Origin: Clostridiales bacterium | Lineage (GTDB): Bacteria; Bacillota; Clostridia; Christensenellales; Borkfalkiaceae | Assembly: GCA_015069605.1 (NCBI GenBank) | Contig: SVII01000002.1 | Coordinates: 62,001 to 126,000, forward strand | Direction of reading: 5' to 3' | DNA: 64,000 nucleotides | Shown: positions 1 to 13,370 of the stretch, one piece after another | How the letters are laid out: each line of letters opens with the position of its first letter | Numbering within the stretch: the first letter of the stretch is position 1 | Program-made: the position numbers and the translations under genes | The notes under the pieces: generated by a model | The model's input: only the letters and a program-made list of their open reading frames with translations | Told to the model about the DNA's origin: nothing | The model's database searches: none

Positions 1-782
1 AACAACATATTGTTGCCCGTGAAATCGATATACTTCAAGGATTCCAAGCCCACCGTGTATTCCGAAATCATATTGTCGCTGACAATAATGTTCGTCAGGG
101 CATTACAGTTGTTCAATGCATCAATATTTTCCAGGGTGTTGTTTGCAAAGTTTACCTCTTTCAGGTTTTTCATACCAAACAAGTTGACACAGGAAGCAGG
201 TACAGTTTCCGCAGTATACGCTATGGAATGCACACCGCAATCTCTAAGCGCTAACGTTTCCAAACCCGTCAACATAGGAATATCCCCAAAGTTTGTAATC
301 TCACAATCACTCAGCGAAAGTTCCTTGATCGTACGCAATTCCGCCGCCGTATATTTATCGTCAGCACCAATCGTCGAACCGTACAAAATCTTATCACGAA
401 CTTCCGTAGAATTGAACTTCGTCTGATAAGGAATGGTTGCAATCAATTCCTCATTTTCATTGTACACGCTGAGTTTTCCCGAACCAACGCCAATCGCGCG
501 AATCTGATCGTTTCCTTCTTCACGGTGCAACACTTCAACTAGTTCCGCATTTTCTGCGCGCAACGTGTATTTGCCAAGCGTCGTGTACTGTTCGGGCGTT
601 AAATAGTCGGATACTTTCACTTCCAACGTCGAACCTAATGCCAAATCCGTAATACCTTCCGCTCTACGCACTTCGCCGCCGAAATACGCTACGCCCAGCC
701 CCGCTACCGTACCCAGCGCCGCCGTCAACAAAGTGTAAAAGATATACGAGCCTACCCCTCTTACTCCTTTTTTCTTAGCCAT
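1..782 (-). CDS. Membrane-anchored leucine-rich-repeat protein, partial
   Basis: The reading frame starts at the ATG at 782 and runs off the left edge of the window, so the C-terminus is missing. The first 12 residues are basic (MAKKKGVRG) and lead into one hydrophobic segment (about residues 12-32), a signal anchor. A beta-rich stretch of about 100 residues follows. From about residue 150 there are leucine-rich repeats with LxxLxLxxC/N spacing (for example LKEVNFANNTLENIDAL). It is the last visible gene of the eight-gene locus and starts 59 bases after the TIR gene stop. The predicted topology puts the repeats outside the membrane, where they could act as a ligand or stress sensor; that role is inference. 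Internalin- or BspA-type surface LRR proteins are the alternative. Confidence 0.8.
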   Translation of the reverse strand, partial: MAKKKGVRGVGSYIFYTLLTAALGTVAGLGVAYFGGEVRRAEGITDLALGSTLEVKVSDYLTPEQYTTLGKYTLRAENAELVEVLHREEGNDQIRAIGVGSGKLSVYNENEELIATIPYQTKFNSTEVRDKILYGSTIGADDKYTAAELRTIKELSLSDCEITNFGDIPMLTGLETLALRDCGVHSIAYTAETVPASCVNLFGMKNLKEVNFANNTLENIDALNNCNALTNIIVSDNMISEYTVGLESLKYIDFTGNNML

Positions 783-841
783 AAGAACTCCTCTTGTTTT
801 TATCTATATTCTTAATATTTTTTTCGTTGTTGATTCGCGTA

Positions 842-2569
842 TTATTCTTCCTCTTCAAACAGTTCGGAATATACGTCACGGTAATCTTTCGTCGTTTCCA
901 AGATCTCGCGCGCTACGCGTTTGCTCTTCTTTACCCCGATGCCTTGATATACGCACAATCCGTACAAGCACTGCGCGGGATAGAATTTATGAATGATCGT
1001 ACCCAAATCGTCCACCGCTCTCTTTGCTTCGCGCGCATCCTTCCAAATCGTATCGTCGTTTTCGTCTTTATTGAACAACGCCGTATGCGCAAAACACAAC
1101 GCTTTATAATAGATTGCTACGAACGAGTCGTTGTCGTCCAATATATCAAATGCTTTTTCTTGGTCTTTTTTACAGCCTCTGCCATGATACAAACAGAACG
1201 CTCGATGTGCTTGCCCTTCCTTGGAATCCGCGGAAACGAACCATTGATACCCCTTTTCCGTCGAAACCCTCGAATAGATCATACCCAAACGCACTGCCGC
1301 GTTGTTGTTTCTATATCTCGTCCACAGATAACGGTATCTCTCCACCGCTTCTTCTTCGTTGCCTGCCGTTTCCACGCTCTTGGCAAGTTCCCAAAGCTCC
1401 ATTTCTTTGTTGTCGAACAAATCCGTTTTCTTGCCTTTTTTGTTGATTTTTTCCAAATGCGCTTCCACCGTTTGCAACAATTTATTTGCATTCAGCTTCA
1501 ATTTATCCTTTTTCGCACTCTCTACGAACGCATCGAAATAGTTTTCTTGCTCGATACCTTTCGTGCCGTAGATATGGTTCAAGCACGCTCTCGAACAGTC
1601 CTGACCGCCGTACGTTTGCGTTTGGAATACGGGCAGAATGTGCTTTTCGCCGTAGAACCCTTCGTCCATGAATTTGTAGAAGGTTACCCATTCGTTTTGT
1701 ACGTTGGGAGCAAGGACATATTCCGATTTCGTTCCGATAACAATCATAATACGGCTGGTAAGGAGTGCCTCGTAAATCCAGCTGCGCCAGTTGTTATTGA
1801 ATTCCCCCAAACGTTTCAAACCGCTTTGCGTCTTTTTCGTTTCCGGAGCAAAGAACACCTTGTAACGTTTGCTCAGTGCTTTGTACATTTGTTTGCCCAA
1901 CTTATAATCGGGAGTATTTTCATGTCCGCCCGCATCGTCCGTCTTATGACAAATGAAGATGTCAAAGTTATTTAATTTGCCATCCTCTTTATATCCTTGT
2001 AACATTCTTGTGTACGTTGCCGCGGAATAAATCATATCCTCTGCAATTTCTCCAAGAATGCCGTTGTCTTCTTTGCCTAAACCGAAGTTTTCAGCAAAAC
2101 GACTAGCTTTTAATTTTTTCGGAGAGAAAATGTCGATATTACAAGGCGTGAAACAGCCCGTACTGTTTCCGCGCGCGTCGATAATCGGGCCTAATACACG
2201 GAATTCCGCACGGCATTCGATATAATCCATCCACGGCGCAAACATTTCCGCCAAACCGTTTTCATCGTCTTCCAATCTAGTTCTCAAAGAACGCACTCTT
2301 GACAGCACTTCGTCAAATTTACCAAACTGCAACGCCGTATAAATGGACTCGCACTCCTGCTTAATTTCCACTTCTTCGTCCGCAAAAGGATTGTAACAGG
2401 TCTTGCACAGCCAACCGCCGTTTTGTTCCACGAAGTTGCTGCCGCCTTTGTACTGCATCGCGCCGCAAATCGGACATTTCATTTCCTTGCCCGAAGTGCT
2501 CTGTCCCATAAACAGACCGCTTTGATTGCCGCCCCTTTCCGCATCTTTGTTCTTCTTCATTAAAGCCAT
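842..2569 (-). CDS. Zinc-ribbon / TIR domain / SEL1-repeat protein
   Basis: A treble-clef-like zinc ribbon (C32, C35, C55, C58; CPICGA motif) opens the protein. A helical region follows, then a TIR domain at about residues 202-340: FDIFICHKTDD strand A, KVFFAPET strand B, IYEALLTSR helix, MIVIGTKSEY, and NEW with E293 at the position of the catalytic glutamate of TIR NADases. SEL1/TPR-like repeats fill about 425-560 (AHRAFCLYHGRGCKKD, AQCLYGLCVYQGIGVKK). The ATG at 2569 was chosen because GGAGG lies 8 bases upstream; a GTG at 2587 overlaps that site. TIR domains in bacterial defence often degrade or cyclise NAD, so an effector role is plausible but not shown. Its N-terminal ribbon resembles that of the protease at the other end of the locus. 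Confidence 0.85.
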   Translation of the reverse strand: MALMKKNKDAERGGNQSGLFMGQSTSGKEMKCPICGAMQYKGGSNFVEQNGGWLCKTCYNPFADEEVEIKQECESIYTALQFGKFDEVLSRVRSLRTRLEDDENGLAEMFAPWMDYIECRAEFRVLGPIIDARGNSTGCFTPCNIDIFSPKKLKASRFAENFGLGKEDNGILGEIAEDMIYSAATYTRMLQGYKEDGKLNNFDIFICHKTDDAGGHENTPDYKLGKQMYKALSKRYKVFFAPETKKTQSGLKRLGEFNNNWRSWIYEALLTSRIMIVIGTKSEYVLAPNVQNEWVTFYKFMDEGFYGEKHILPVFQTQTYGGQDCSRACLNHIYGTKGIEQENYFDAFVESAKKDKLKLNANKLLQTVEAHLEKINKKGKKTDLFDNKEMELWELAKSVETAGNEEEAVERYRYLWTRYRNNNAAVRLGMIYSRVSTEKGYQWFVSADSKEGQAHRAFCLYHGRGCKKDQEKAFDILDDNDSFVAIYYKALCFAHTALFNKDENDDTIWKDAREAKRAVDDLGTIIHKFYPAQCLYGLCVYQGIGVKKSKRVAREILETTKDYRDVYSELFEEEE

Positions 2570-2620
2570 TCGCTCTCCCTCCTCCACTCGTTTTTAAAGA
2601 TTTTTCTCCTTAAAGACGTC

Positions 2621-4414
2621 TTACTCTTCTTGCGTATCTTGTTCTTCTTTCTCAGGCTCTTCCACGTCCTGCGTTACTTCTATGTCTTCCGCTACTTCCA
2701 CTTCTTCCGTAGCAACGATTTCTGCCGTAGCAGGTTCTTCTTCCGACGTATTCGTTTCGTCCGCGTTCGACGCTTGTACGTCGTATTCCCGAATGTGTTC
2801 GGGTACGGGCAACCCCAAATAACGGTACGCCGACGGCATCGCTACGCGCCCCTTGGGTAACACGTTGATGAAGCCGAGTTTTAATAAATAATTTTCATAC
2901 TGCTGCGAAATGACGTTGACGCTTTCGTTCATGGCTTTGGCGAGATTTTCCTGCCCTGCAGGGCCACCGTTAAACGTTTCAATCAATACCCGAAGCAACG
3001 TTCTATCCCCATTCGTCAAGCCGTATTCGTCAATGCCGTTTTCGTTGAAATACCGTTCAATAACGTCCGCCGTCACCCAAATATCCAACTGTCTAATCTT
3101 TTCAGGGGACGACAGCGCGCCCTTTTCCACAATCCCACGTTCTTCCGCCGTTTTGATCAACGCTTTGTCTGCAATACGCGACACGAAACGATTGACAATA
3201 CGAGGAGTATTTCTCGCGCGTTTAGCAAGCTCTAACGCAAGCTCCTGCGTGATATTCATGCCAAGTTTCGCAAAGGAATTGATTGCGATATTCGCCAAAA
3301 TGTCGTCTGTATATGGCACAAGTCTGCAATCGATCCCGAAACGATCTTTGAAAGGTTTTAATAATTTCCCCGCTTCCGTCGTTGCCCCAACGAGCGTAAA
3401 CCTCGGCAATTCTTTAAACTTATTCTCCGCGCGACGACCCTTGCCTTCCAAATACCGCAAGGAGAAATCTTCCATTGCGGAATACAAAACGCCTTCCGCT
3501 ACCACAGGGGGCAGGTTGTGGATTTCGTCGATAAAAACGATATCTCCTTCCTTTAATTTTAACAGTATCTGCACCACCGTGTCCACCGTCAACGTTCTCG
3601 CGTTGCTGATTTCCACGAACTCCGTCTGCATTTCGTTTGCCAAAATCTTCGCCAGCGTCGTTTTTCCCAACCCTTGCGATCCGTACAGCAATACGTGCGG
3701 CAGAGCCCCACCGCTCAAACGAGTCTTTTTCACTGCGTCGGATAAGATCGCCACCGCTTGCGGCTGTCCGAAATAATCCTGCAACTTTTGCGGACGCATT
3801 GCCGAACCGCCCGATTCATAGCGCGTAGGCGCAGGCTCTTCTTTCGTTTCTTCTTTATGATCCTCTTTCGGCACTTCGGGAAGATCGAGTGCAGGGAAAG
3901 GTTCGGAATGTTCCTCTTCCTTTTCTTCCTGTTCTTCCTCTTGCTTACTCGGTTCTTCTTGCGGTTCTTCCTGTACTTCCTCGATTTTTTCGGGAGTTTC
4001 CCCATCATCAAGGGTAAGTTCAGGCACTTCGTCCTTAGGAGGTTCGTTTTTCATTTTGTCCATATAAGCAGCAAAAGGATCAGGCTTTTTCTCCGTCAGC
4101 GGTTCAAAATCCGTAACGGCAGGCGCGTCCATATACGTAGCGTATTCATCTTTGCTACGGAACACCTGCTTGACACGCGGAGAAAACCCTTCCAAGCGTA
4201 TATCTCTTGCAAGTTGATAAATTTCACTCGCCTTTGCCTCGTAAAACGTGCGACGTTCGTCTGAACGTTCCGCATTATACAATATCTCCAACGCTTTCAA
4301 AGCCTCGAACAAATACTTTCGCGTATTCGCCTTGTCTTCCATTCTCGCCTGATCGCGCGCCTTGGCAAAGTTCATATTGCAATAATTATATAATGTTTGC
4401 GCGGGAGTACCCAT
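2621..4414 (-). CDS. RuvB-like AAA+ ATPase with N-terminal MIT-like domain
   Basis: Residues 8-75 form a predicted three-helix bundle with the AxxA..ED.A...Y..AL.AL spacing of MIT domains (Vps4 type). A very acidic Glu/Lys/Pro linker spans 110-205. The rest is RuvB-like: Walker A GSQGLGKT (245-252), Walker B IVFIDEIHN (292-300), sensor 1 GATTEAG, KDRFGI, and a RuvB-type C-terminal winged helix (GGPAGQENLAKAMNE ... PKGRVAMPSAYRYLG). An acidic tail of about 60 residues ends it. At 597 aa it is far longer than RuvB (about 340 aa), and ruvA and ruvC are not neighbours. It is probably a RuvB paralogue working on another substrate. The AAGGAG site 7 bases before the ATG supports the start. Next to a second MIT-like ATPase and an ESCRT-III-like protein. 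Confidence 0.85.
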   Translation of the reverse strand: MGTPAQTLYNYCNMNFAKARDQARMEDKANTRKYLFEALKALEILYNAERSDERRTFYEAKASEIYQLARDIRLEGFSPRVKQVFRSKDEYATYMDAPAVTDFEPLTEKKPDPFAAYMDKMKNEPPKDEVPELTLDDGETPEKIEEVQEEPQEEPSKQEEEQEEKEEEHSEPFPALDLPEVPKEDHKEETKEEPAPTRYESGGSAMRPQKLQDYFGQPQAVAILSDAVKKTRLSGGALPHVLLYGSQGLGKTTLAKILANEMQTEFVEISNARTLTVDTVVQILLKLKEGDIVFIDEIHNLPPVVAEGVLYSAMEDFSLRYLEGKGRRAENKFKELPRFTLVGATTEAGKLLKPFKDRFGIDCRLVPYTDDILANIAINSFAKLGMNITQELALELAKRARNTPRIVNRFVSRIADKALIKTAEERGIVEKGALSSPEKIRQLDIWVTADVIERYFNENGIDEYGLTNGDRTLLRVLIETFNGGPAGQENLAKAMNESVNVISQQYENYLLKLGFINVLPKGRVAMPSAYRYLGLPVPEHIREYDVQASNADETNTSEEEPATAEIVATEEVEVAEDIEVTQDVEEPEKEEQDTQEE

Positions 4415-4458
4415 TCTTTTGCTCCTTTTTCGTTCTCACAAAACGCTCGTGTTTCGCG

Positions 4459-5622
4459 TTAGCTGATGTACGGCGTGTAATCGGTGGGAACGTCCTCTTC
4501 TTCAAATACCATCAATTCTTCTTTGGAGAACTGAATGTTTGCGCCGCGTTCCGCCAAACGATTGCTTTGATTTTCCTGCATATCCTGCAACAGGTTACGC
4601 ATCTGACGACCGTTACCGAAACAAGCCGTTCTGTTGTCGTAAATATCCCCGATCAACGCAATGACTTTTTCTCTTGCAGACGGCGTTAATTTATACTGAC
4701 CGCTCTTGCATTTCAATTCAAAAATCTTGAACAAAGCGTCTTTGTCATAGTCTTCAAATTCGATAATATTTTTGAAACGGGAATTCAAACCAGGGTTGGC
4801 TTTGAGGAAATCCGTCATTTCCTTTTTATAACCTGCCGCCACGACGATAAACCCTTCGCGCTGATTTTCCATCACGGGCAACAACGTGTTGACCGCTTCC
4901 AAACCGAACGGGTCGTTTCTACCGCGTACCAGCGTGTACGCTTCGTCGATAAACAATACGCCGCCAATCGCTTCTTCGATCACCTTACGGGTTTTCGGAG
5001 CGGTTTGCCCTTCGTATTCTGCAACCAAGTCCGCACGCAACGCTTCGACCATTTGACCTTTTTCCAAGACGCCGATGGCACGGTACATCTGCGCGATCAA
5101 ACGCGCTACCGTCGTTTTACCCGTACCGGGATTGCCCGAAAATACCATATGGTTGGTCGAATCGGACACTTTCATGCCTTGTTGTTTACGCTGCGCTTCC
5201 ATACGCACTTTGTTGATCATCGTGCGAACGCGCTTTTTTACCCCTTCCAAACCAATCATGTCGTCGAGTTCCTGCAACGCTTGTTCCAACGTCACTTCAG
5301 GATCCGCTTCCTTAATAGGTACGGTAGGTTTCTTCTCGTCTTCCTTGTTATCGCCGTTGCCGTTGCCGCTGCCACTGCCGCCGTTTCCGCTCACCTTTTT
5401 CGGCGCGGGTTTCCCTTCGATAAGTTCTTTCAATTTTTCAATCTCATTTTGGTAAAAAGCAACCGTCTGAGGCATAATGTTCGGCGAATACGCGATCATA
5501 GCCGCTACGTTTGCCGCGCGGCGAGCGAGTTCTTTTACTTCCGCCGTATCCCCGCGGCTTTGCGCCTGTTTAATGCCCGCAACAAGCTCGTTATACGTTT
5601 TGCTCAATAACGAATAATTCAT
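4459..5622 (-). CDS. CbbX/SpoVK-type AAA+ ATPase with N-terminal MIT-like domain
   Basis: Residues 4-70 are a helical hairpin or three-helix bundle with MIT-like spacing (NELVAGIKQAQSRGDTAEV ... FYQNEIEKLKELI). A Gly/Ser/Asn linker (77-95) leads to an AAA+ module of the CbbX/SpoVK family: GLEGVKKRV box, Walker A GNPGTGKT (163-170), Walker B VLFIDE (222-227), then GYKKEM, PGLNSRF and FGNGRQMRNLL. Family members remodel protein complexes, such as CbbX on Rubisco. In ESCRT systems the AAA+ partner Vps4 reads ESCRT-III tails through its MIT domain. Here the ESCRT-III-like gene ends only 35 bases upstream of this start. The start has an AGGTGG site 5 bases upstream. Confidence 0.88.
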   Translation of the reverse strand: MNYSLLSKTYNELVAGIKQAQSRGDTAEVKELARRAANVAAMIAYSPNIMPQTVAFYQNEIEKLKELIEGKPAPKKVSGNGGSGSGNGNGDNKEDEKKPTVPIKEADPEVTLEQALQELDDMIGLEGVKKRVRTMINKVRMEAQRKQQGMKVSDSTNHMVFSGNPGTGKTTVARLIAQMYRAIGVLEKGQMVEALRADLVAEYEGQTAPKTRKVIEEAIGGVLFIDEAYTLVRGRNDPFGLEAVNTLLPVMENQREGFIVVAAGYKKEMTDFLKANPGLNSRFKNIIEFEDYDKDALFKIFELKCKSGQYKLTPSAREKVIALIGDIYDNRTACFGNGRQMRNLLQDMQENQSNRLAERGANIQFSKEELMVFEEEDVPTDYTPYIS

Positions 5623-5657
5623 TTGACCACCTACGTTTTCTCAACTTCTACAAACGC

Positions 5658-6215
5658 TTATAATTGTGCGTTCTTTTCCGCATTCACTTTATCCCAAAGA
5701 TCGGTAGAAGCGCCCGAAAGCGAACCCGTCTTGCTCACGTGGCGGGACTGAATGAACATCATTGCCTGCGCTTTTTGTTCAGGCGAAAGGAACGCCTTTG
5801 CAGGGCTGGAACTGCGCATAATTCCCGAAATTTCTTTGCGTGCTTGGCGGGACGTTGCCGTATTCATCGCCAACTGCTTTTGGATTTTCGCCAACTTCTT
5901 CGTGTTGGGCATCTTTACGCCTGCCGACGTGTTGCCTACCGTCGTCAACACTTTTACCATCGTGTTGGAAATATGCGACGTCACCACTTGCAACTTGGTG
6001 TTTACTTTCAAACTCTTCAAAGACGCCAACTGTTCACTGTAAAAGCAGATGCTTTCCATCACTTGATCGACGAGCCCTTGATCCCCCGATTCCAACGCTT
6101 CGCTGCCCAAATCGCCAAGTTCGTTCAACTGCGCTTCCACTTCCCCGATCGCTTCGTTGATCGCGTCCATGCAGCGTTCTTGTTCCATACGAATTTCAAT
6201 TTCACTTTTCGCCAT
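5658..6215 (-). CDS. Small ESCRT-III (Snf7/CHMP)-like protein
   Basis: This 185-residue protein is almost all helical. It has the ESCRT-III core layout: a long first hairpin (residues 5-95, with EALESGDQGLVDQVMESICFY resembling helix 2 of CHMP proteins), then an LKVNTKLQVVTSHISNTM stretch where CHMP1/Did2 has its LRMSARVDAVAARVQTA, a glycine-containing turn, and a shorter amphipathic helix (KKLAKIQKQL). A flexible C-terminal tail (about 140-185) could carry a MIT-interacting motif, but no clear MIM consensus is visible. Bacterial PspA and Vipp1 belong to the same superfamily; this protein is shorter and nearer to Snf7 by pattern. It sits between a coiled-coil gene and two MIT-like AAA+ genes. 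The assignment rests on pattern only. Confidence 0.6.
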   Translation of the reverse strand: MAKSEIEIRMEQERCMDAINEAIGEVEAQLNELGDLGSEALESGDQGLVDQVMESICFYSEQLASLKSLKVNTKLQVVTSHISNTMVKVLTTVGNTSAGVKMPNTKKLAKIQKQLAMNTATSRQARKEISGIMRSSSPAKAFLSPEQKAQAMMFIQSRHVSKTGSLSGASTDLWDKVNAEKNAQL

Positions 6216-6299
6216 TTTTCTTTACCTCGTCCTTTATTTCAGTATCGCGCGCCGCCCTATCAAGCGGCGCGTCCGTCATATTTATTCTTCGCCTATTTC

Positions 6300-7583
6300 T
6301 TATCGATCCAAAGGAGATTTCTTGGAGAAATCTGTCGCTGCGTCGTTATCCGCAACGCCTACGCCCAAGCTGTCAATCTCCGCCTGTGCCGCCGCCTGCG
6401 CTTGTTTTCTTCTAATACGCGCTTCGCGATCCGCCATAATCTTGGGATCTACCGCCGATCTCGTAGGAGCCGCCATATCCATCTTCTTAGGCCCGCCCAC
6501 TTCAATACGCTTAGGCGCTACCTTGTTGATTTCCTTGCTAAATACGTCCAGCAACGCCTGCAAATTGTTGGGATTGCTCAAGCTGACGCCCTTCGCGCTA
6601 AGCTGCTCTTCAATCCATTTCACCGTCTTTTCAGAGCTGTCGCGGCTGAGCAAGTTTTCAATCATCACTTTCAAGCGGGAAAGCCCATCTTTCAAATTGC
6701 TGTAATTTTGAATATCCGAAGATTTCCAATCTCTTTCCGCTTTCAAGGACTCGATGTCGTTTGCAGCCTGTTCGTATTCGGTGTCACGGCTAAGATCATC
6801 CGCAATTTCATCCAAAAATCTGTCTTTTTCCGCAATTTCTTGGTTGAGCGCGTCGATTTCTTCCTGCGCCTTTTCACGCTTGGAAAGCTGTTCTTTTACC
6901 ATAGCATCGATTTCCGCCAACTTCGCGTCCAAAACTTTGCCGCCCGTCGCCGCACCTGCTCCGCTAGGTTTATACGTACCCATATGTACGGAATTTGCAA
7001 GCGAAGAAATCATCTTATACGCTTTCGCTTCATCTCTACCCGAAAGCAACTGGCTGAGCGTCTTTTTGTCCGCTTCCGAAAGCACCGTACCGCGCACTTT
7101 CTTTTCTTCGTACTGCAAGCTGACTTCTTCCAACAACGTATTGAGTGCCGTATTCAAACGTTCGCTGTTGACAAGTTCGGGATTGCCGAATTTGCCACTC
7201 TTCATATCTCTAATCAAACGAATGAGAATTTCTTCATCCTCGTGTTTTACCTGGCCGCCGCCTATGTTTGCGCCAAAAGCAATAATCATTGCTTCCTTGA
7301 CGATACGGTTGACTTCGTTTAAAAATTCACCCGTCGTTTTCAAACCGCGCACTTTCATTTCATACGCTTTGATAATGCTGCCCGTGAAGTTTGCCGAGCT
7401 GTTAGATTTCTTGAAATCGGAAATATTCAAACGATCGAAATCGGAGCTAATTTTTCTCCATTGTTCCAATTCGTTATAAGAAAATTCACTCGAAAGACCG
7501 TCGTTGACTTCCAAGATTACCTTTTCCACTTGTTTCCAATCCGTTTTATTGCCGCCACCGAAAAGTTTATCAAAAATCCCCAT
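6300..7583 (-). CDS. Coiled-coil protein with amphipathic N-terminus
   Basis: The 427-residue protein starts MGIFDKLFGGG, an amphipathic start like those of PspA, Snf7 and YdjI-type proteins that insert into membranes. Residues 15-215 are helical. Residues 228-345 form a long heptad-rich coiled coil (LSKREKAQEEIDALNQEIAEK). The C-terminal 70 residues are Ala/Arg/Lys-rich and probably disordered. No catalytic motif is visible. Its AGGAGG site lies inside the last codons of the SPFH-like gene (gap of 5 bases), so the two are probably translationally coupled. It may be a second filament-forming or scaffold subunit of the ESCRT-like machine, but this is inferred from its N-terminus and neighbours only. 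Confidence 0.7.
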   Translation of the reverse strand: MGIFDKLFGGGNKTDWKQVEKVILEVNDGLSSEFSYNELEQWRKISSDFDRLNISDFKKSNSSANFTGSIIKAYEMKVRGLKTTGEFLNEVNRIVKEAMIIAFGANIGGGQVKHEDEEILIRLIRDMKSGKFGNPELVNSERLNTALNTLLEEVSLQYEEKKVRGTVLSEADKKTLSQLLSGRDEAKAYKMISSLANSVHMGTYKPSGAGAATGGKVLDAKLAEIDAMVKEQLSKREKAQEEIDALNQEIAEKDRFLDEIADDLSRDTEYEQAANDIESLKAERDWKSSDIQNYSNLKDGLSRLKVMIENLLSRDSSEKTVKWIEEQLSAKGVSLSNPNNLQALLDVFSKEINKVAPKRIEVGGPKKMDMAAPTRSAVDPKIMADREARIRRKQAQAAAQAEIDSLGVGVADNDAATDFSKKSPLDR

Positions 7584-7588
7584 AACGA

Positions 7589-8431
7589 TTAGTCCTCCTC
7601 AAGTTCTCTGCGAATGTTGTGCGCGATCTTTGCCGCCTTGTACTGGCTTGCCAAAACGTCTGCATTGCTGACGTGCTGCGCCGCTGCGTTGAAGTTCTTT
7701 TTGATTCTTTCGTACAATTCGCCCATCGGTTCAATCTTGGTTACTTTACAAATGATTTCTACCCAGCCCGATTCTCTATCCGCATCGTACACTTCTCTGC
7801 TCAACTGCAACGCGTAATCGTTAACTTCCCCTCTAATCGATTCCAAAGCCGAAAGCATCACGCCGTTCGCCGTGGAATTTTCAGAAATGCAATCTTCGAT
7901 ATAGCTGAACAAACGAGTCTTAATCGTATCATGGAAATACTGACGAACGTTGAATCCGTTGCTATCCCCCGTATAATCCGCATACAAAGGTTCGCTAGGC
8001 GTCACTTCGTCCATGTGCGCTTTGATAAAGTTCGTGCCGTTCAACACTTTACCAAAACCAAACGTACCAACTACGGTAACGGGCGCCATAAACGACGTCT
8101 TTTCACCGCTCGATTGATTGGTGAATACCAAACGGGTTTCCCCCGTCAATCTACCTCTAAATTCGTTGCCGTCCGTCAAAAGAGATTTGCAATCGCTCAT
8201 CATACCGAACAATCTGTAAGCAACCCCTTTTTTCAGTTCGATTTCACCGCGAACGGGTTCAAAACGTTTTTCGTTCATGTTATACAAATACGCAGCGGTG
8301 TTGGGAGCCGTCGCAACCTTAATTTTTGCGCTTCCCATACCGAACAATCCGCCTTTTTTGTTGGAAATATCGTATTCCCAAAGCAAACACTTATTTTTCC
8401 CCTCGGGGAGTTTAATTTGAATGGTTTCCAT
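7589..8431 (-). CDS. Putative SPFH/band-7-like (YdjI-type) protein
   Basis: The 280-residue protein has a beta-rich first half (residues 1-130). A region then follows with the spacing of SPFH domains: VTVVGTFGFGKVLNGTNFI, then an amphipathic helix block (FHDTIKTRLFSYIED ... LSALESIRGEVNDYALQLSREV) and a closing strand (WVEIICKVTKIEP). SPFH proteins form large membrane-associated scaffolds, and in Bacillus YdjI is encoded with the ESCRT-III superfamily member PspA. That pairing fits the ESCRT-III-like gene two places downstream here. No zinc ribbon is seen at its C-terminus, unlike YdjI. AGGAG lies 8 bases before the ATG. The domain call is tentative; it could be an unrelated beta-sandwich. 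Confidence 0.45.
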   Translation of the reverse strand: METIQIKLPEGKNKCLLWEYDISNKKGGLFGMGSAKIKVATAPNTAAYLYNMNEKRFEPVRGEIELKKGVAYRLFGMMSDCKSLLTDGNEFRGRLTGETRLVFTNQSSGEKTSFMAPVTVVGTFGFGKVLNGTNFIKAHMDEVTPSEPLYADYTGDSNGFNVRQYFHDTIKTRLFSYIEDCISENSTANGVMLSALESIRGEVNDYALQLSREVYDADRESGWVEIICKVTKIEPMGELYERIKKNFNAAAQHVSNADVLASQYKAAKIAHNIRRELEED

Positions 8432-8455
8432 AATATGTACTCCTATGTATCTTTT

Positions 8456-9907
8456 TTATTTTCTTATTTTGTCACCTTCAGTAAAACCACAATTATCACA
8501 ATGGAAGATGTTGTTTTGTATATTTGTGTTCCAAGAATTACAAATGGGACAAGGCGCTTTTGCCTTTTTAATTTCTCCAGTTTGACTCGTGCGTGTAAAT
8601 CTCTTATGACATTGTTGACAAATACAGCTACCTGTGGGATAAACAACCGCCGTTCCACCACATTCTGGGCAAATGCAATATTTTGTAGGCGGTAAAGAGA
8701 ATTCTCCGCTCATCAAACGCACTGCCGTGTGTTCTCCGTTGAGGAATTCCTCTACGATAAACGAGGGAATTGCGTAATTCATACCTTCCGTTGCAGAACC
8801 GTCCGCTTTTACTCTCGAAGAAACGATAACGCCGATGACTTTCCCCTTCGCGTTGAAGATAGGGCCGCCCGAATTTCCGTTGTTGATCGGGCAATCGGTC
8901 ATCAACAATTTGTGCCCGTTCAGCGTTCTGCACTTGTCGCTGACAATACCGCTCGTGATACACGTGCCGTCACCAAGAGAGTTACCGATAACGTACACTT
9001 GTTCCCCAATTCTTACGTTGTCAAAGTTTTCAAAACAAAGGGATTTCCCTCTTGCAGGGAATTTCGACAGTTTCAACAACGCCAAATCGACGCCGTTCCC
9101 TCTGCCGCCTTTATCATCGCCCAACATTACGACACTGGCTTTGATTGTTTCCCCTGCCACTCTTACGGATACGTCGCGGCAAGGCTGCGAATTATGCGTC
9201 ACCACGTGCGTGTTCGTAATCGCATAGCCCGTGTTGCTGATCAAGAAACCCGAACCCGAAGATATACAATTTGCATACCGACAAGTAACTTCCAACACGC
9301 CTGCAATACTCTTTTCGTAAACGTTTACGCCTTCGTTGGAAACGGGCGTCGTATTAGGTCTGGGTGCGTTCTGTTCTTTCGCTGCTCTCTCTTGCGCTAC
9401 GAATTTGGCAAAACGTTCGCGAATGACTATGCCGCAACGGCTATTGCCTGCGCGCAAGCCTTCTTTGTACCAAAAATACGCTTTGGTTTTATTGATCTCC
9501 GTTCCTTGTCCATTTTCGTAAGCATACGCTACTTTGTACATGGATTCGCTGTCGCCTTTTTCCGCCGCTACTTTGAAATATGCAAACGCTTTCGCAAGGT
9601 CTTTCTCTCTTCTCTTTTCGCCGTATTCATATTCATAAGCGATTTTACGCAATTCCTCGACGCTCATTTTTTCCATCGAGACTGCTTTATCCGGTTTCTT
9701 ACCCGTCACCCCATACATTGCCAAAAGGTCACCCATTCCAGCCAAGGGATCTGCCGCGCCCGTTGCAGGGGGCGTTACGCTTGCTACGCTTTCTTTTGCT
9801 GGCCATTGAAAATCGCTGAAACAAAGTTTACAAAAATACGAGCCACCGCCGTTGTCTTTCACGTCTTTCGACGCTGCTCCGCAAATGGGGCATTTCAAAG
9901 TTGCCAT
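8456..9907 (-). CDS. Trypsin-like (S1C) serine protease with zinc ribbons and SEL1 repeats
   Basis: Order of domains: an N-terminal zinc ribbon (CPICGA ... CKLC), SEL1 repeats (about residues 80-160, AFAYFKVAAEKGDSESMYKVA), and an S1 protease domain with His234 (TNTHVV), Asp274 (GVDLALLKL) and Ser346 (GNSGGP). Two C-terminal zinc ribbons follow (CPECGG ... CQQC and CPICNS ... CDNC). There is no signal peptide, so it should act in the cytosol. As the first gene of the locus it follows the promoter at 9977-10006. The start is uncertain: ATG at 9907 fits the zinc ribbon best, TTG at 9922 is an alternative, and the only strong AGGAGG site is far upstream. Cytosolic trypsin-like proteases occur in several bacterial conflict systems. 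Confidence 0.88.
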   Translation of the reverse strand: MATLKCPICGAASKDVKDNGGGSYFCKLCFSDFQWPAKESVASVTPPATGAADPLAGMGDLLAMYGVTGKKPDKAVSMEKMSVEELRKIAYEYEYGEKRREKDLAKAFAYFKVAAEKGDSESMYKVAYAYENGQGTEINKTKAYFWYKEGLRAGNSRCGIVIRERFAKFVAQERAAKEQNAPRPNTTPVSNEGVNVYEKSIAGVLEVTCRYANCISSGSGFLISNTGYAITNTHVVTHNSQPCRDVSVRVAGETIKASVVMLGDDKGGRGNGVDLALLKLSKFPARGKSLCFENFDNVRIGEQVYVIGNSLGDGTCITSGIVSDKCRTLNGHKLLMTDCPINNGNSGGPIFNAKGKVIGVIVSSRVKADGSATEGMNYAIPSFIVEEFLNGEHTAVRLMSGEFSLPPTKYCICPECGGTAVVYPTGSCICQQCHKRFTRTSQTGEIKKAKAPCPICNSWNTNIQNNIFHCDNCGFTEGDKIRK

Positions 9908-9976
9908 AATCCGTTCAGACAAGCCTTTTATAGACTGTGCCTTTCCTCCTTATATATAAATATAAATATTTTTACT

Positions 9977-10006
9977 ATTTTATCATATTTTGTCGTATAT
10001 TGTCAA
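9977..10006 (-). promoter_or_regulatory. Sigma-A promoter of the ESCRT-like/TIR locus
   Basis: On the minus strand TTGACA (-35, 10001-10006) and TAAAAT (-10, 9977-9982) are 18 bases apart, with a TGn extension before the -10. It lies about 70 bases upstream of the protease start, and no other strong promoter was seen inside the eight-gene run. Confidence 0.7.
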
Positions 10007-10082
10007 TAGGTTAGGAAAAATTTGTTTATTTATTTTATCTTTGTTCACTTTTTTAGCAAATTGTTTAAATTTTTTGCATAAA

Positions 10083-10114
10083 AAAACACCGCTCTCCTTA
10101 GAAAACGGTGTTTG
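10083..10114 (-). terminator. Rho-independent terminator of pfkA
   Basis: An AAACACCG / CGGTGTTT stem is followed on the minus strand by a T tract, 27 bases past the pfkA stop. It separates pfkA from the promoter of the ESCRT-like locus. Confidence 0.85.
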
Positions 10115-11547: not shown

Positions 11548-13272
11548 TTAATATAACGAGAAAAACGCCTTACTGCCTGAAAGCAAATGCTCATCCAATA
11601 CCCATTCGCCGTTCTTTTTGATGACGCCGAATTGACATTCTTTCGCCGCTTCGTATAAATCGTTTCCGTCGTACCCTACAATCTTATCCGACATTTCGTC
11701 TAAAATACGTTTTGCTTCGGGCGTAAATCTCGACGTCGTAATGAAAATACCGCGACAATGCTGTTTCCCGTCTTTCGCCTGACGACACATACACGCGCCG
11801 ATAAATTGTTGCAACAGCGTTTCGCCTACCACCCACAATTTTTCGTCGCCCTTATCGGGATTCCAGTTCTTCGACTGTATGTAGATGGTTTCCTTAAAAC
11901 CGAGTTTATCCGTCAATTCAATCTCGCCGTCAATGCCGCCGTCGCGTTCTCCCGCCGTGATCTTCATGCCTTCCAAACGTCTGCCGTTTTTCATCGAATA
12001 TCTTTCCAACAAATACACCGAATAGTATTCAAAATAATCGCCGCCAAGCGCGCGCATCTTCCTCAAAAACGTTTCGCGCAATCTCTCGTCTGCCGTCAAA
12101 GGTCTGCCAATCACCACACGACGATTCTCCGCCGTTATTGCCGTTTTGACACCGCCGACGGGACGAAGAGCCTTTTTCTGTTCTTTCGCCGTCGTTTGTT
12201 CTTTTACGGGTTCTTTCACGATAGGAGCTTTCTTCTCCGCAAGTTTTTCTACGGGTTTCGCCGTCTTCATTTCCGCCTTAACGGGCTCTTTCTTTTCTAC
12301 GGGTTTTACATCCGATTTTTCTTCCTGAATAGGCGTCTTTTCCGCCTTAGTCGGTTTCACCGAGCCAAAGAGAAAACTCATATCCATGAGCGTTCCTTTT
12401 GGCCCGTCTTCCGCTTTCTTTTCTTCCTGTTTTTCTTGCGGTTTTTCTTGCGGTTTTTCTTCCTTTGCAGGTTCTTTTTCCGCTTTGGGTTCTTCCGCAA
12501 TTTCCGTTTTCATCTCGACCACGGGTGCTTGTTCTTGCGTTTTTTCCGTCTTTACTTCTTCCGCTGGTGCAACCGTTTCCGCCTTGTCTTCTACCTTGAC
12601 CGATTTCGCTTTTCTGCCGCGTTTTTTGGGCACAACTTCGGGCATGGGTTCGGGCGCAGTTTCAGGCGTCACGGGCGCAACGGGCGCGATGGGTTGCAAA
12701 GGGGCAGGGGGAAGAGGCAAAACTTCTTCCGTTTCTTCCTTTTTCGGCTCTGCGTCGGGCGCAGGCGTCGTTTGAGGTTCGGGCTTTTCTGCAGGCAAAG
12801 GCTGAATTTTTTCCGCTTTTACCGTCTTCGTCTTTTTCGCCGTTTTTTTAGCGGGTTTTTCTTCCTTACCTTCCGCTACAATTTGCGTTTTTACTTCTTC
12901 CGCAACCGTCGTTTCCTTCTTCGCTTTCCCGCGGCGTTTCGTCGTTTTTTCTTCTTTTACTGCTTCGGTCTTTGTAGGTTCTTCCGACGTTTTTACCGCT
13001 TTCAACGCGTACATACCCCCGTCAAACGTTACGTCACCGTCCTTTTTCATGATATCGAGTACCGACCCGATTCTACCCTTGACGTCGTTGATATTTTCCG
13101 TGTCTTCACCGCTGTATCTTTCGGTGTACAGTTTTGATGCCGCGTCGATTAAATCGTTGTGTTTGTACGTCTTTTTTGCAAGCACTTCACGAATCAAACC
13201 TTTCGCAGCGTCTTTTTTTTCCGCGCGCGTAATCAAAGGCGCGGAGTCTTTCTTCTTGCTGATTCTTGCCAT
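11548..13272 (-). CDS. Mrr-type restriction endonuclease-like protein with winged-helix N-terminus
   Basis: Residues 1-80 form a winged-helix-like domain (AAKGLIREVLAKKTYKHNDL ... GGMYALK), perhaps of the HARE-HTH kind known from bacterial endonuclease fusions. A roughly 300-residue Lys/Glu/Pro-rich linker holds two AT-hook-like cores (RRGKAKK, KKRGRKAK). The C-terminal 170 residues are an Mrr-type PD-(D/E)xK nuclease: GGIDGEIEL then IYIQSKNW supply the D...QxK site, followed by LQQFIGA and GIFITTSRFTPEA. The start at 13272 has AGGAG 7 bases upstream; a start 30 bases further upstream lacks one. Mrr enzymes cut modified or foreign DNA. No methylase gene is near. It sits one gene away from the ESCRT/TIR locus, so a defence role is plausible. 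Confidence 0.8.
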   Translation of the reverse strand: MARISKKKDSAPLITRAEKKDAAKGLIREVLAKKTYKHNDLIDAASKLYTERYSGEDTENINDVKGRIGSVLDIMKKDGDVTFDGGMYALKAVKTSEEPTKTEAVKEEKTTKRRGKAKKETTVAEEVKTQIVAEGKEEKPAKKTAKKTKTVKAEKIQPLPAEKPEPQTTPAPDAEPKKEETEEVLPLPPAPLQPIAPVAPVTPETAPEPMPEVVPKKRGRKAKSVKVEDKAETVAPAEEVKTEKTQEQAPVVEMKTEIAEEPKAEKEPAKEEKPQEKPQEKQEEKKAEDGPKGTLMDMSFLFGSVKPTKAEKTPIQEEKSDVKPVEKKEPVKAEMKTAKPVEKLAEKKAPIVKEPVKEQTTAKEQKKALRPVGGVKTAITAENRRVVIGRPLTADERLRETFLRKMRALGGDYFEYYSVYLLERYSMKNGRRLEGMKITAGERDGGIDGEIELTDKLGFKETIYIQSKNWNPDKGDEKLWVVGETLLQQFIGACMCRQAKDGKQHCRGIFITTSRFTPEAKRILDEMSDKIVGYDGNDLYEAAKECQFGVIKKNGEWVLDEHLLSGSKAFFSLY

Positions 13273-13370
13273 ATATTCTCCTATTTTTGAGCGTATCGTC
13301 ACATCTTACGAGTCGCCCACTTCTTAAAATACGTACGAAGAATAGCAAACCGCCTTTTGCGTATTTCCCC

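What the first reader, a model, noticed from the sequence alone, without database searches (positions are those of the whole stretch)
1..10010. Eight-gene locus combining ESCRT-III-like, MIT-AAA+, SPFH-like, TIR, protease and LRR proteins
Seen: one promoter, eight same-strand genes with short gaps, encoding a Snf7-like helical protein, two AAA+ ATPases with MIT-like N-termini, an SPFH-like scaffold, a coiled-coil protein with an amphipathic start, a TIR protein, a trypsin-like protease and a membrane-anchored LRR protein. Known: ESCRT-III filaments are remodelled by MIT-containing AAA+ Vps4; PspA is an ESCRT-III relative and partners with SPFH protein YdjI in Bacillus; TIR and cytosolic trypsin domains are effectors in bacterial defence. 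Inference: a membrane damage or phage sensing system that remodels membrane and triggers protease or NADase effectors. I know of no characterised system with this set.
Basis: partly seen in the sequence, partly recalled or inferred. Interest (0 to 1): 0.93.

Follow-up and report, generated by a model that had tools for sequence, protein, structure and literature searches.

The report
Bacterial ESCRT-TIR membrane surveillance operon
A bacterium with relatives among Clostridia carries a twelve-gene operon that joins a predicted relative of our cells' membrane-cutting ESCRT-III proteins to ATPases, a predicted TIR protein, a protease and a membrane-anchored LRR protein, a set that likely senses and answers damage or attack at the cell membrane.

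Summary
The 185-aa protein belongs to a bacterial family; one branch matches eukaryotic ESCRT-III by profile comparison (probability 92%, 0 of 40 shuffles as high), and the model of another branch has only ESCRT-III-superfamily chains among its ten best Foldseek hits, none significant alone. Main-branch operons keep SPFH, coiled-coil, ESCRT-III-like, AAA+ and TIR genes together, often with a trypsin-like protease. Some AAA+ partners carry the Vps4 C-terminal domain. In several relatives one protein holds TIR, a predicted TM segment and LRRs, which links the window's separate TIR and LRR genes. The window's own motors are SpoVK-type and RuvB-type on N-terminal domains related to those of the relatives' motors. 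Not settled: whether those N-termini are MIT or TPR, whether the window's 280-aa protein is SPFH, and the function. Defence or envelope surveillance is inferred from effector-like parts, BrxL in three relatives and patchy occurrence; two relatives beside the ftsA-ftsZ cluster keep a division role open.

The parts
10084..10113 (-). terminator-like stem-loop after pfk, upstream boundary
   Evidence: L010 11114-11085
9977..10006 (-). promoter-like site TTGACA-18-TAAAAT, TG before the second hexamer
   Evidence: L010 11007-10978, 11 of 12 matches
8456..9922 (-). gene 1: trypsin-like (HtrA-type) protease with Sel1 repeats and CxxC pairs, 488 aa; H239, D279, S351 in place
   Evidence: hhalign to relatives' proteases prob 99.95
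7589..8431 (-). gene 2: 280 aa, putative SPFH-like protein, in the slot where relatives carry Band_7 proteins
   Evidence: position; hhalign score 22.1 vs 30 shuffles mean 14.6 max 18.9, but 20.3 vs max 22.0 with a second profile; no match
6300..7583 (-). gene 3: 427-aa coiled-coil-like protein, related to the relatives' gene next to SPFH
   Evidence: hhalign prob 53, E 1.3e-4, 228 columns (no shuffle control)
5658..6215 (-). gene 4: ESCRT-III-like protein, 185 aa
5664..5705 (-). C-terminal helix of gene 4 (residues 171-184, low model confidence), MIM1-like in position only
   Evidence: MIM1 pattern recalled
4459..5622 (-). gene 5: SpoVK/CbbX-type AAA+ ATPase, N-terminus related to that of relatives' type A AAA
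   Evidence: TIGR02881 E 1.2e-81 but below its cut-off; AAA and AAA_lid_6 over cut-off; N-terminus
2621..4414 (-). gene 6: RuvB-type AAA+ ATPase, N-terminus related to that of relatives' Vps4_C-type AAA; a second, stronger RuvB match lies elsewhere in the genome
   Evidence: RuvB_N 150 bits, RuvB_C 58 bits; NF000868 288 bits here, 513 bits at C8; N-terminus
842..2587 (-). gene 7: TIR-like protein with CxxC pairs and a sub-threshold Sel1 match, 581 aa, candidate catalytic E299 in a NEW motif
1..782 (-). gene 8 (N-terminal part): TM-anchored LRR protein, 698 aa in full (L009 10686-12782)
   Evidence: genes 9-12 lie outside the window at L009 10689-5385

Best explanation
The operon encodes a predicted bacterial ESCRT-III-type membrane-remodelling machine, with two AAA+ ATPases, that would be coupled to a membrane-anchored LRR protein, a predicted TIR protein and a protease so as to detect and answer damage or attack at the cell envelope. 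Likely order of events (all inferred): the LRR protein senses outside; the DO-GTPase-GAP1 pair gates the response; the SPFH-like and coiled-coil proteins form a platform at the membrane; ESCRT-III-like polymers assemble there and are turned over by AAA+ motors that bind them through their N-terminal domains; the TIR protein (possible NAD hydrolysis) and the protease act as effectors if the threat is not contained. Shown by calls: the gene cluster, the domain matches, the family link to ESCRT-III, the conserved neighbourhood and the TIR-TM-LRR proteins of relatives.
For: ESCRT-III: window branch to main branch hhalign prob 98.2, E 5.3e-14; main to third branch prob 98.2, E 3.5e-14; third branch to a CHMP/Snf7 profile prob 92.4, E 5.3e-7, 142 columns, score 49.1 against 40 block shuffles mean 14.6 max 20.8; PspA, a known relative, scores 29.0 on that profile. 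Both AlphaFold models show a long helix hairpin, shorter helices and a C-terminal helix; for the main-branch model the ten best Foldseek PDB hits, and 18 of the best 20, are ESCRT-III-superfamily chains. Motors: Vps4_C matches 6 of 6 type B AAAs, 3 over the cut-off, and is over it in 2 of 5 third-branch AAAs; at E 0.001 it matched 0 of 245 genomes of the class and, of 14 control genomes, two archaea. Co-occurrence in 14 main-branch loci: coiled coil 14, SPFH 13, AAA 13, TIR 13, HTH 10, trypsin 8. A predicted TM segment lies between TIR and LRRs in 5 of 7 TIR proteins scanned. Effectors and gating: TIR NEW motif and protease triad, DO-GTPase2 and GAP1-M over cut-off, BrxL in 3 of 7 third-branch loci.
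Confidence: 0.55

Rival explanations
1. It is a housekeeping cell-division or envelope-maintenance machine, a bacterial analogue of archaeal Cdv, rather than defence.
For: In L090 the SPFH gene follows ftsZ-like directly; in L087 three genes stand between (gene names recalled from sequence). No relative found in phages, plasmids or viral contigs. ESCRT-III works in archaeal division (PMC11188069, passages).
Against: Patchy: 13 of 347 genomes of the order, seven of them weak matches; TIR, protease, BrxL and GAP1/DO-GTPase parts look like conflict effectors and gates.
Confidence: 0.25
2. It is a further variant of the DO-GTPase/GAP1-N2 conflict systems of Kaur et al. 2020, whose assembled structure is an ESCRT-like polymer instead of tubulin or HSP70.
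For: DO-GTPase2 49.4 bits and GAP1-M 32.9 bits, both over cut-off; published themes use tubulin, HSP70 or kinase partners; a GAP1 locus of another genome (L066) carries an HSP70-like protein by its N-terminal sequence (family recalled).
Against: In the stretches held of the relatives, phmmer with the window's own GAP1 and GTPase found no match, so the ESCRT/SPFH/TIR core stands alone there; GAP1-N2 is below cut-off (19.0 of 24) and no FNIII domain was listed.
Confidence: 0.4
3. The 185-aa family is only a generic long helical hairpin that resembles ESCRT-III by convergence.
For: No Foldseek E below 0.001; BAR domains and other hairpins score alike; sequence searches alone find nothing.
Against: Third-branch profile match far above shuffles, and rank enrichment in Foldseek; partner AAAs with Vps4_C, and SPFH partners.
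Confidence: 0.15

Closest known systems
Archaeal and eukaryotic ESCRT (ESCRT-III plus Vps4)
   Same: ESCRT-III-like protein, with short hydrophobic N-terminus in two branches and a C-terminal helix; AAA+ partner with Vps4_C in some relatives; SPFH partner, with zinc ribbon in two third-branch loci scanned, as reported for some archaeal ESCRT loci (PMC11188069, passages)
   Different: bacterial; tied to TIR, LRR and protease genes; the window's motors are SpoVK- and RuvB-type
PspA/PSP systems (PMC11237479) with Band-7/SPFH partners
   Same: ESCRT-III superfamily protein beside Band-7 and sometimes AAA+ genes
   Different: no PspA match in the own genome; TIR-domain, LRR and trypsin partners are not in the passages and section read
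DO-GTPase/GAP1-N2 conflict systems (PMC7159879)
   Same: DO-GTPase2 (with a sub-threshold zinc-ribbon match) followed by GAP1
   Different: ESCRT-like module instead of tubulin, HSP70 or kinase; no FNIII component found
Toll-like receptors (LRR-TM-TIR)
   Same: several relatives combine TIR, predicted TM and LRR in one chain
   Different: reverse order (TIR first), TPR and InlB-type repeats added; split into two genes in the window; homology not claimed

Membership tests
ESCRT-III superfamily | long alpha1-alpha2 hairpin followed by shorter helices | tested here: met
   models: helices 5-43, 46-96, 105-118, 122-134, 145-163, 171-184 and the same layout in a second branch; moderate to low confidence (pLDDT 76 and 64)
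ESCRT-III superfamily | sequence-profile homology to ESCRT-III | tested here: met
   at family level: third branch prob 92.4, linked to the window protein; window branch alone inconclusive, no Snf7 hit with HMMER
ESCRT-III superfamily | C-terminal MIT-interacting motif | tested here: inconclusive
   conserved C-terminal helix, MIM1-like in the third branch by eye
ESCRT-III superfamily | forms membrane-bound polymers | not testable with these tools
   none
Vps4 (window AAAs) | Vps4-type AAA with C-terminal Vps4_C | tested here: not met
   SpoVK-type and RuvB-type AAA; no Vps4_C in own genome at E 10
Vps4 (relatives' type B and third-branch AAAs) | Vps4_C domain | tested here: met
   over cut-off in 3 of 6 type B and 2 of 5 third-branch AAAs
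Vps4 (relatives) | N-terminal MIT domain | tested here: inconclusive
   third branch vs MIT prob 55, vs TPR 27; type A vs MIT 39, vs TPR 73; type B neither
SPFH (window gene 2) | Band_7/SPFH domain | tested here: inconclusive
   no Pfam hit; no hhalign match; above shuffles with one profile, not with another; relatives met
DO-GTPase/GAP1-N2 system | DO-GTPase and GAP1 middle domain | tested here: met
   49.4 bits (cut-off 27) and 32.9 bits (cut-off 24)
DO-GTPase/GAP1-N2 system | GAP1-N2 domain | tested here: inconclusive
   19.0 bits, cut-off 24
DO-GTPase/GAP1-N2 system | FNIII-repeat component | tested here: not met
   no FNIII Pfam match listed for the twelve proteins (for one AAA only the best 25 of 28 families were shown)
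catalytic TIR | catalytic glutamate | tested here: inconclusive
   E299 in NEW, aligned by motif only

The most novel reading that the evidence does not exclude
Clostridia possess a true bacterial ESCRT system, with an ESCRT-III family nearer to eukaryotic CHMP proteins than PspA is and with Vps4_C-type AAA partners, wired through SPFH platforms to membrane-spanning TIR-LRR receptors and proteases: ESCRT and Toll-like parts in one bacterial immune or envelope-repair pathway.
Probability: 0.4. Interest if true: 0.93.

Novelty: new variant of a known kind. Interest (0 to 1): 0.82.

Why it matters
[quoted passage not shown] A bacterial operon family with an ESCRT-III-like protein beside AAA+ ATPases bearing the Vps4 C-terminal domain would bear on that view and on how ESCRT arose. 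Its coupling to TIR, LRR and protease parts would link membrane remodelling to bacterial immunity and make both directly testable in bacteria.

Tried and rejected
Sequence searches with HMMER did not reveal ESCRT-III; profile-profile comparison of the window and main branches alone was not clearly above shuffles. The first PspA control set held wrong reading frames and was replaced. PADLOC gave only partial domain matches, such as IetA for an AAA and RT-Protease_XI for the protease. A search for an empty site in three genus mates failed because pfk there lies in a different neighbourhood. Scans of phages, plasmids and viral contigs gave nothing. The phylum-wide scan (0 of 398) is weak evidence, because the same profile also misses the window's own copy. 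A direct hhalign of the window's gene 2 to the main branch's SPFH failed. That gene 6 is simply the genome's own RuvB was rejected: a stronger match lies at C8 (513 bits against 288). Paper searches in which I saw no listing that describes this gene set; the library holds only open PMC papers.

Full report
The locus. The window is bases 62001-126000 of contig C11 of an unnamed 1.34-Mb genome, 84% complete. Genes run on the minus strand from 9922 to the left edge, with gaps of 5-84 bp. Fetching the bases to the left shows that the LRR protein is 698 aa long and is followed, at gaps of -4, 0, 1 and 51 bp, by a 354-aa protein with three predicted TM segments, a 111-aa protein, a 421-aa protein with DO-GTPase2 (49.4 bits, cut-off 27) and an 861-aa protein with GAP1-M (32.9 bits, cut-off 24) and a weak GAP1-N2 match (19.0 bits, cut-off 24). 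A terminator-like stem follows at L009 5376-5340, then a 12-of-12 promoter match before the next gene; upstream are a terminator-like stem at 10113-10084 and an 11-of-12 promoter match at 10006-9977. These are pattern matches, and other promoter-like and terminator-like matches occur inside the region, but together with the spacing they suggest one twelve-gene operon.

Sequence evidence. The window and main branches alone were not clearly above shuffled controls against ESCRT-III profiles. A scan of 347 genomes of the order with the main-branch profile found 13 matches, six strong and seven weak. The seven weak hits led to a third branch; six of these seven loci (L086-L091) gave an ESCRT-III-like open frame that I aligned, with N-termini such as MGLFKSKQEKEIEK; in L092 I did not extract it. 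The third branch matches a profile of 38 CHMP/Snf7 sequences with probability 92.4, E 5.3e-7 over 142 columns, score 49.1; 40 block shuffles gave mean 14.6, maximum 20.8. It matches the main branch (prob 98.2), which matches the window branch (prob 98.2). PspA, an accepted relative, scored 29.0 on the same profile. Limits: the CHMP profile is dominated by vertebrate CHMP1 and CHMP2 sequences, and the third branch did not rise above shuffles against PspA (5 of 40 as high) or a two-sequence Snf7 profile (8 of 40).

Neighbourhood. A pattern scan of the genome contigs with the main branch gave 14 loci: thirteen Clostridia or Clostridiales MAG records and one titled Elusimicrobiaceae. By tblastn over these 14 loci: coiled coil 14, SPFH 13, AAA 13, TIR 13 (plus a weak match in L033), HTH 10, trypsin 8; of the six without a protease match, five end inside or soon after a TIR or AAA gene. 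The ESCRT-III-like protein was the query, so its 14 of 14 is by construction. Order is HTH, SPFH, coiled coil, ESCRT-III-like, then AAA, TIR and protease in varying order. In the seven third-branch loci similar neighbours recur: AAA in seven; SPFH in four by phmmer to main-branch SPFH, in L086 by Pfam, in L092 by profile and in L089 by hhalign, probability 75; a second conserved protein of about 205 aa in four; BrxL in three.

SPFH. Pfam Band_7_1 is over its cut-off in 3 of 3 relatives scanned (36.3, 64.2 and 54.1 bits; cut-off 24); the two third-branch ones also have zinc ribbons, as the archaeal ESCRT-locus SPFH protein of PMC11188069 is said to have (passages). The window's own 280-aa protein has no Pfam match and no relative but itself in 396 genomes of the order. 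It scores 22.1 against the third-branch SPFH profile (30 shuffles: mean 14.6, max 18.9) but 20.3 against a mixed profile (max 22.0). I treat it as SPFH-like mainly by position.

Motors. Relatives carry two kinds of AAA. Type B has the Vps4 C-terminal domain in 6 of 6 (19.2-24.5 bits; 3 over the cut-off of 21.3). Third-branch AAAs: 23.9, 24.5, 20.3 and 17.2 bits in four of five scanned; in the fifth it was not among the 25 families shown. At E 0.001, 0 of 245 genomes of the class match Vps4_C, and among 14 control genomes M. jannaschii and S. acidocaldarius do; at E 10, 3 of the 14 controls pass the cut-off and the own genome has no match. In the window the motors are SpoVK/CbbX-type and RuvB-type; the genome has a second, stronger RuvB match elsewhere (513 bits at C8 against 288 here). 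Their N-terminal domains correspond to the relatives': RuvB-type N-terminus to type B (score 27.6; 25 shuffles mean 11.0, max 16.0), SpoVK-type to type A (22.9; mean 10.1, max 15.1). L030 shows an intermediate state, with a RuvB-type AAA whose N-terminus matches type B with probability 96. So the motor domain seems to have been exchanged while the N-terminal adaptor stayed (inference). The adaptors resemble both MIT and TPR: third branch 55 against 27 percent probability, type A 39 against 73, type B neither; Pfam lists TPR_2 for 7 of 9 type A N-termini (the window's included in the nine) and no MIT.

Receptor and effectors. Of 16 TIR proteins in the 14 loci, 14 have at least one predicted TM segment by hydropathy. 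Of 7 scanned with Pfam, 6 have LRR_5 over the cut-off, and in 5 of these a predicted TM segment lies between TIR and LRRs. The window splits these parts into a TIR-like protein without a TM segment and a TM-anchored LRR protein. That the LRR part is outside the cell is inferred. The TIR NEW motif and the protease triad are present; their activity is untested. L023 and L028 each also have a TIR protein without a TM segment.

Function. Pointing to conflict or surveillance: the TIR and protease parts, the DO-GTPase-GAP1 pair described as a conflict-system core (PMC7159879, sections 27 and 29 read, passages of others), BrxL in three relatives, and patchy occurrence. Pointing elsewhere: absence from phage, plasmid and viral collections, which does not exclude defence, and two loci beside ftsA-ftsZ: in L090 the SPFH gene comes next after ftsZ, in L087 three genes stand between (names recalled from sequence). 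I commit to a membrane surveillance and remodelling machine, with defence likelier than division.

Compared with what is known. [quoted passage not shown] PMC11237479 (passages and section 18) reports bacterial PspA and Snf7-clade proteins with AAA+ genes, Band-7 partners, and Vps4 transfers in which snf7 is displaced. Parts of the idea are therefore in print, and I call this a new variant. Its combination with TIR, LRR and protease genes, and with GAP1/DO-GTPase, was not seen in the searches.

Noticed in passing
window 11548-13302 (-): Protein with an Mrr-type restriction endonuclease domain (48.4 bits, cut-off 21), upstream of the operon beyond pfk.
   Followed up: no
L087 2690-5118 and L090 5158-7608: ftsA- and ftsZ-like genes lie upstream of third-branch ESCRT-III loci, directly in L090 and with three genes between in L087 (names recalled from sequence).
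   Followed up: partly
L087 11901-13343, L090 11546-12985, L091 6508-7947: BrxL-like proteins inside third-branch loci: Pfam for L087, phmmer to it for the other two.
   Followed up: partly
L086 6239-6853, L087 9195-9815, L088 9873-10487, L090 8893-9519: A second conserved protein of about 205 aa near the ESCRT-III-like gene; not clearly ESCRT-III by profile.
   Followed up: partly
L031 8126-10074: Recombinase-like genes (by sequence recall) on the opposite strand after the TIR gene; no AAA or protease match follows.
   Followed up: no
L023: Record titled Elusimicrobiaceae carries an operon like those of Clostridia MAGs; transfer or mis-binning.
   Followed up: no
L066 15007-17109: HSP70-like protein (by N-terminal sequence, recalled) beside a GAP1 gene in another genome of the order, matching the published HSP70 theme.
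   Followed up: partly
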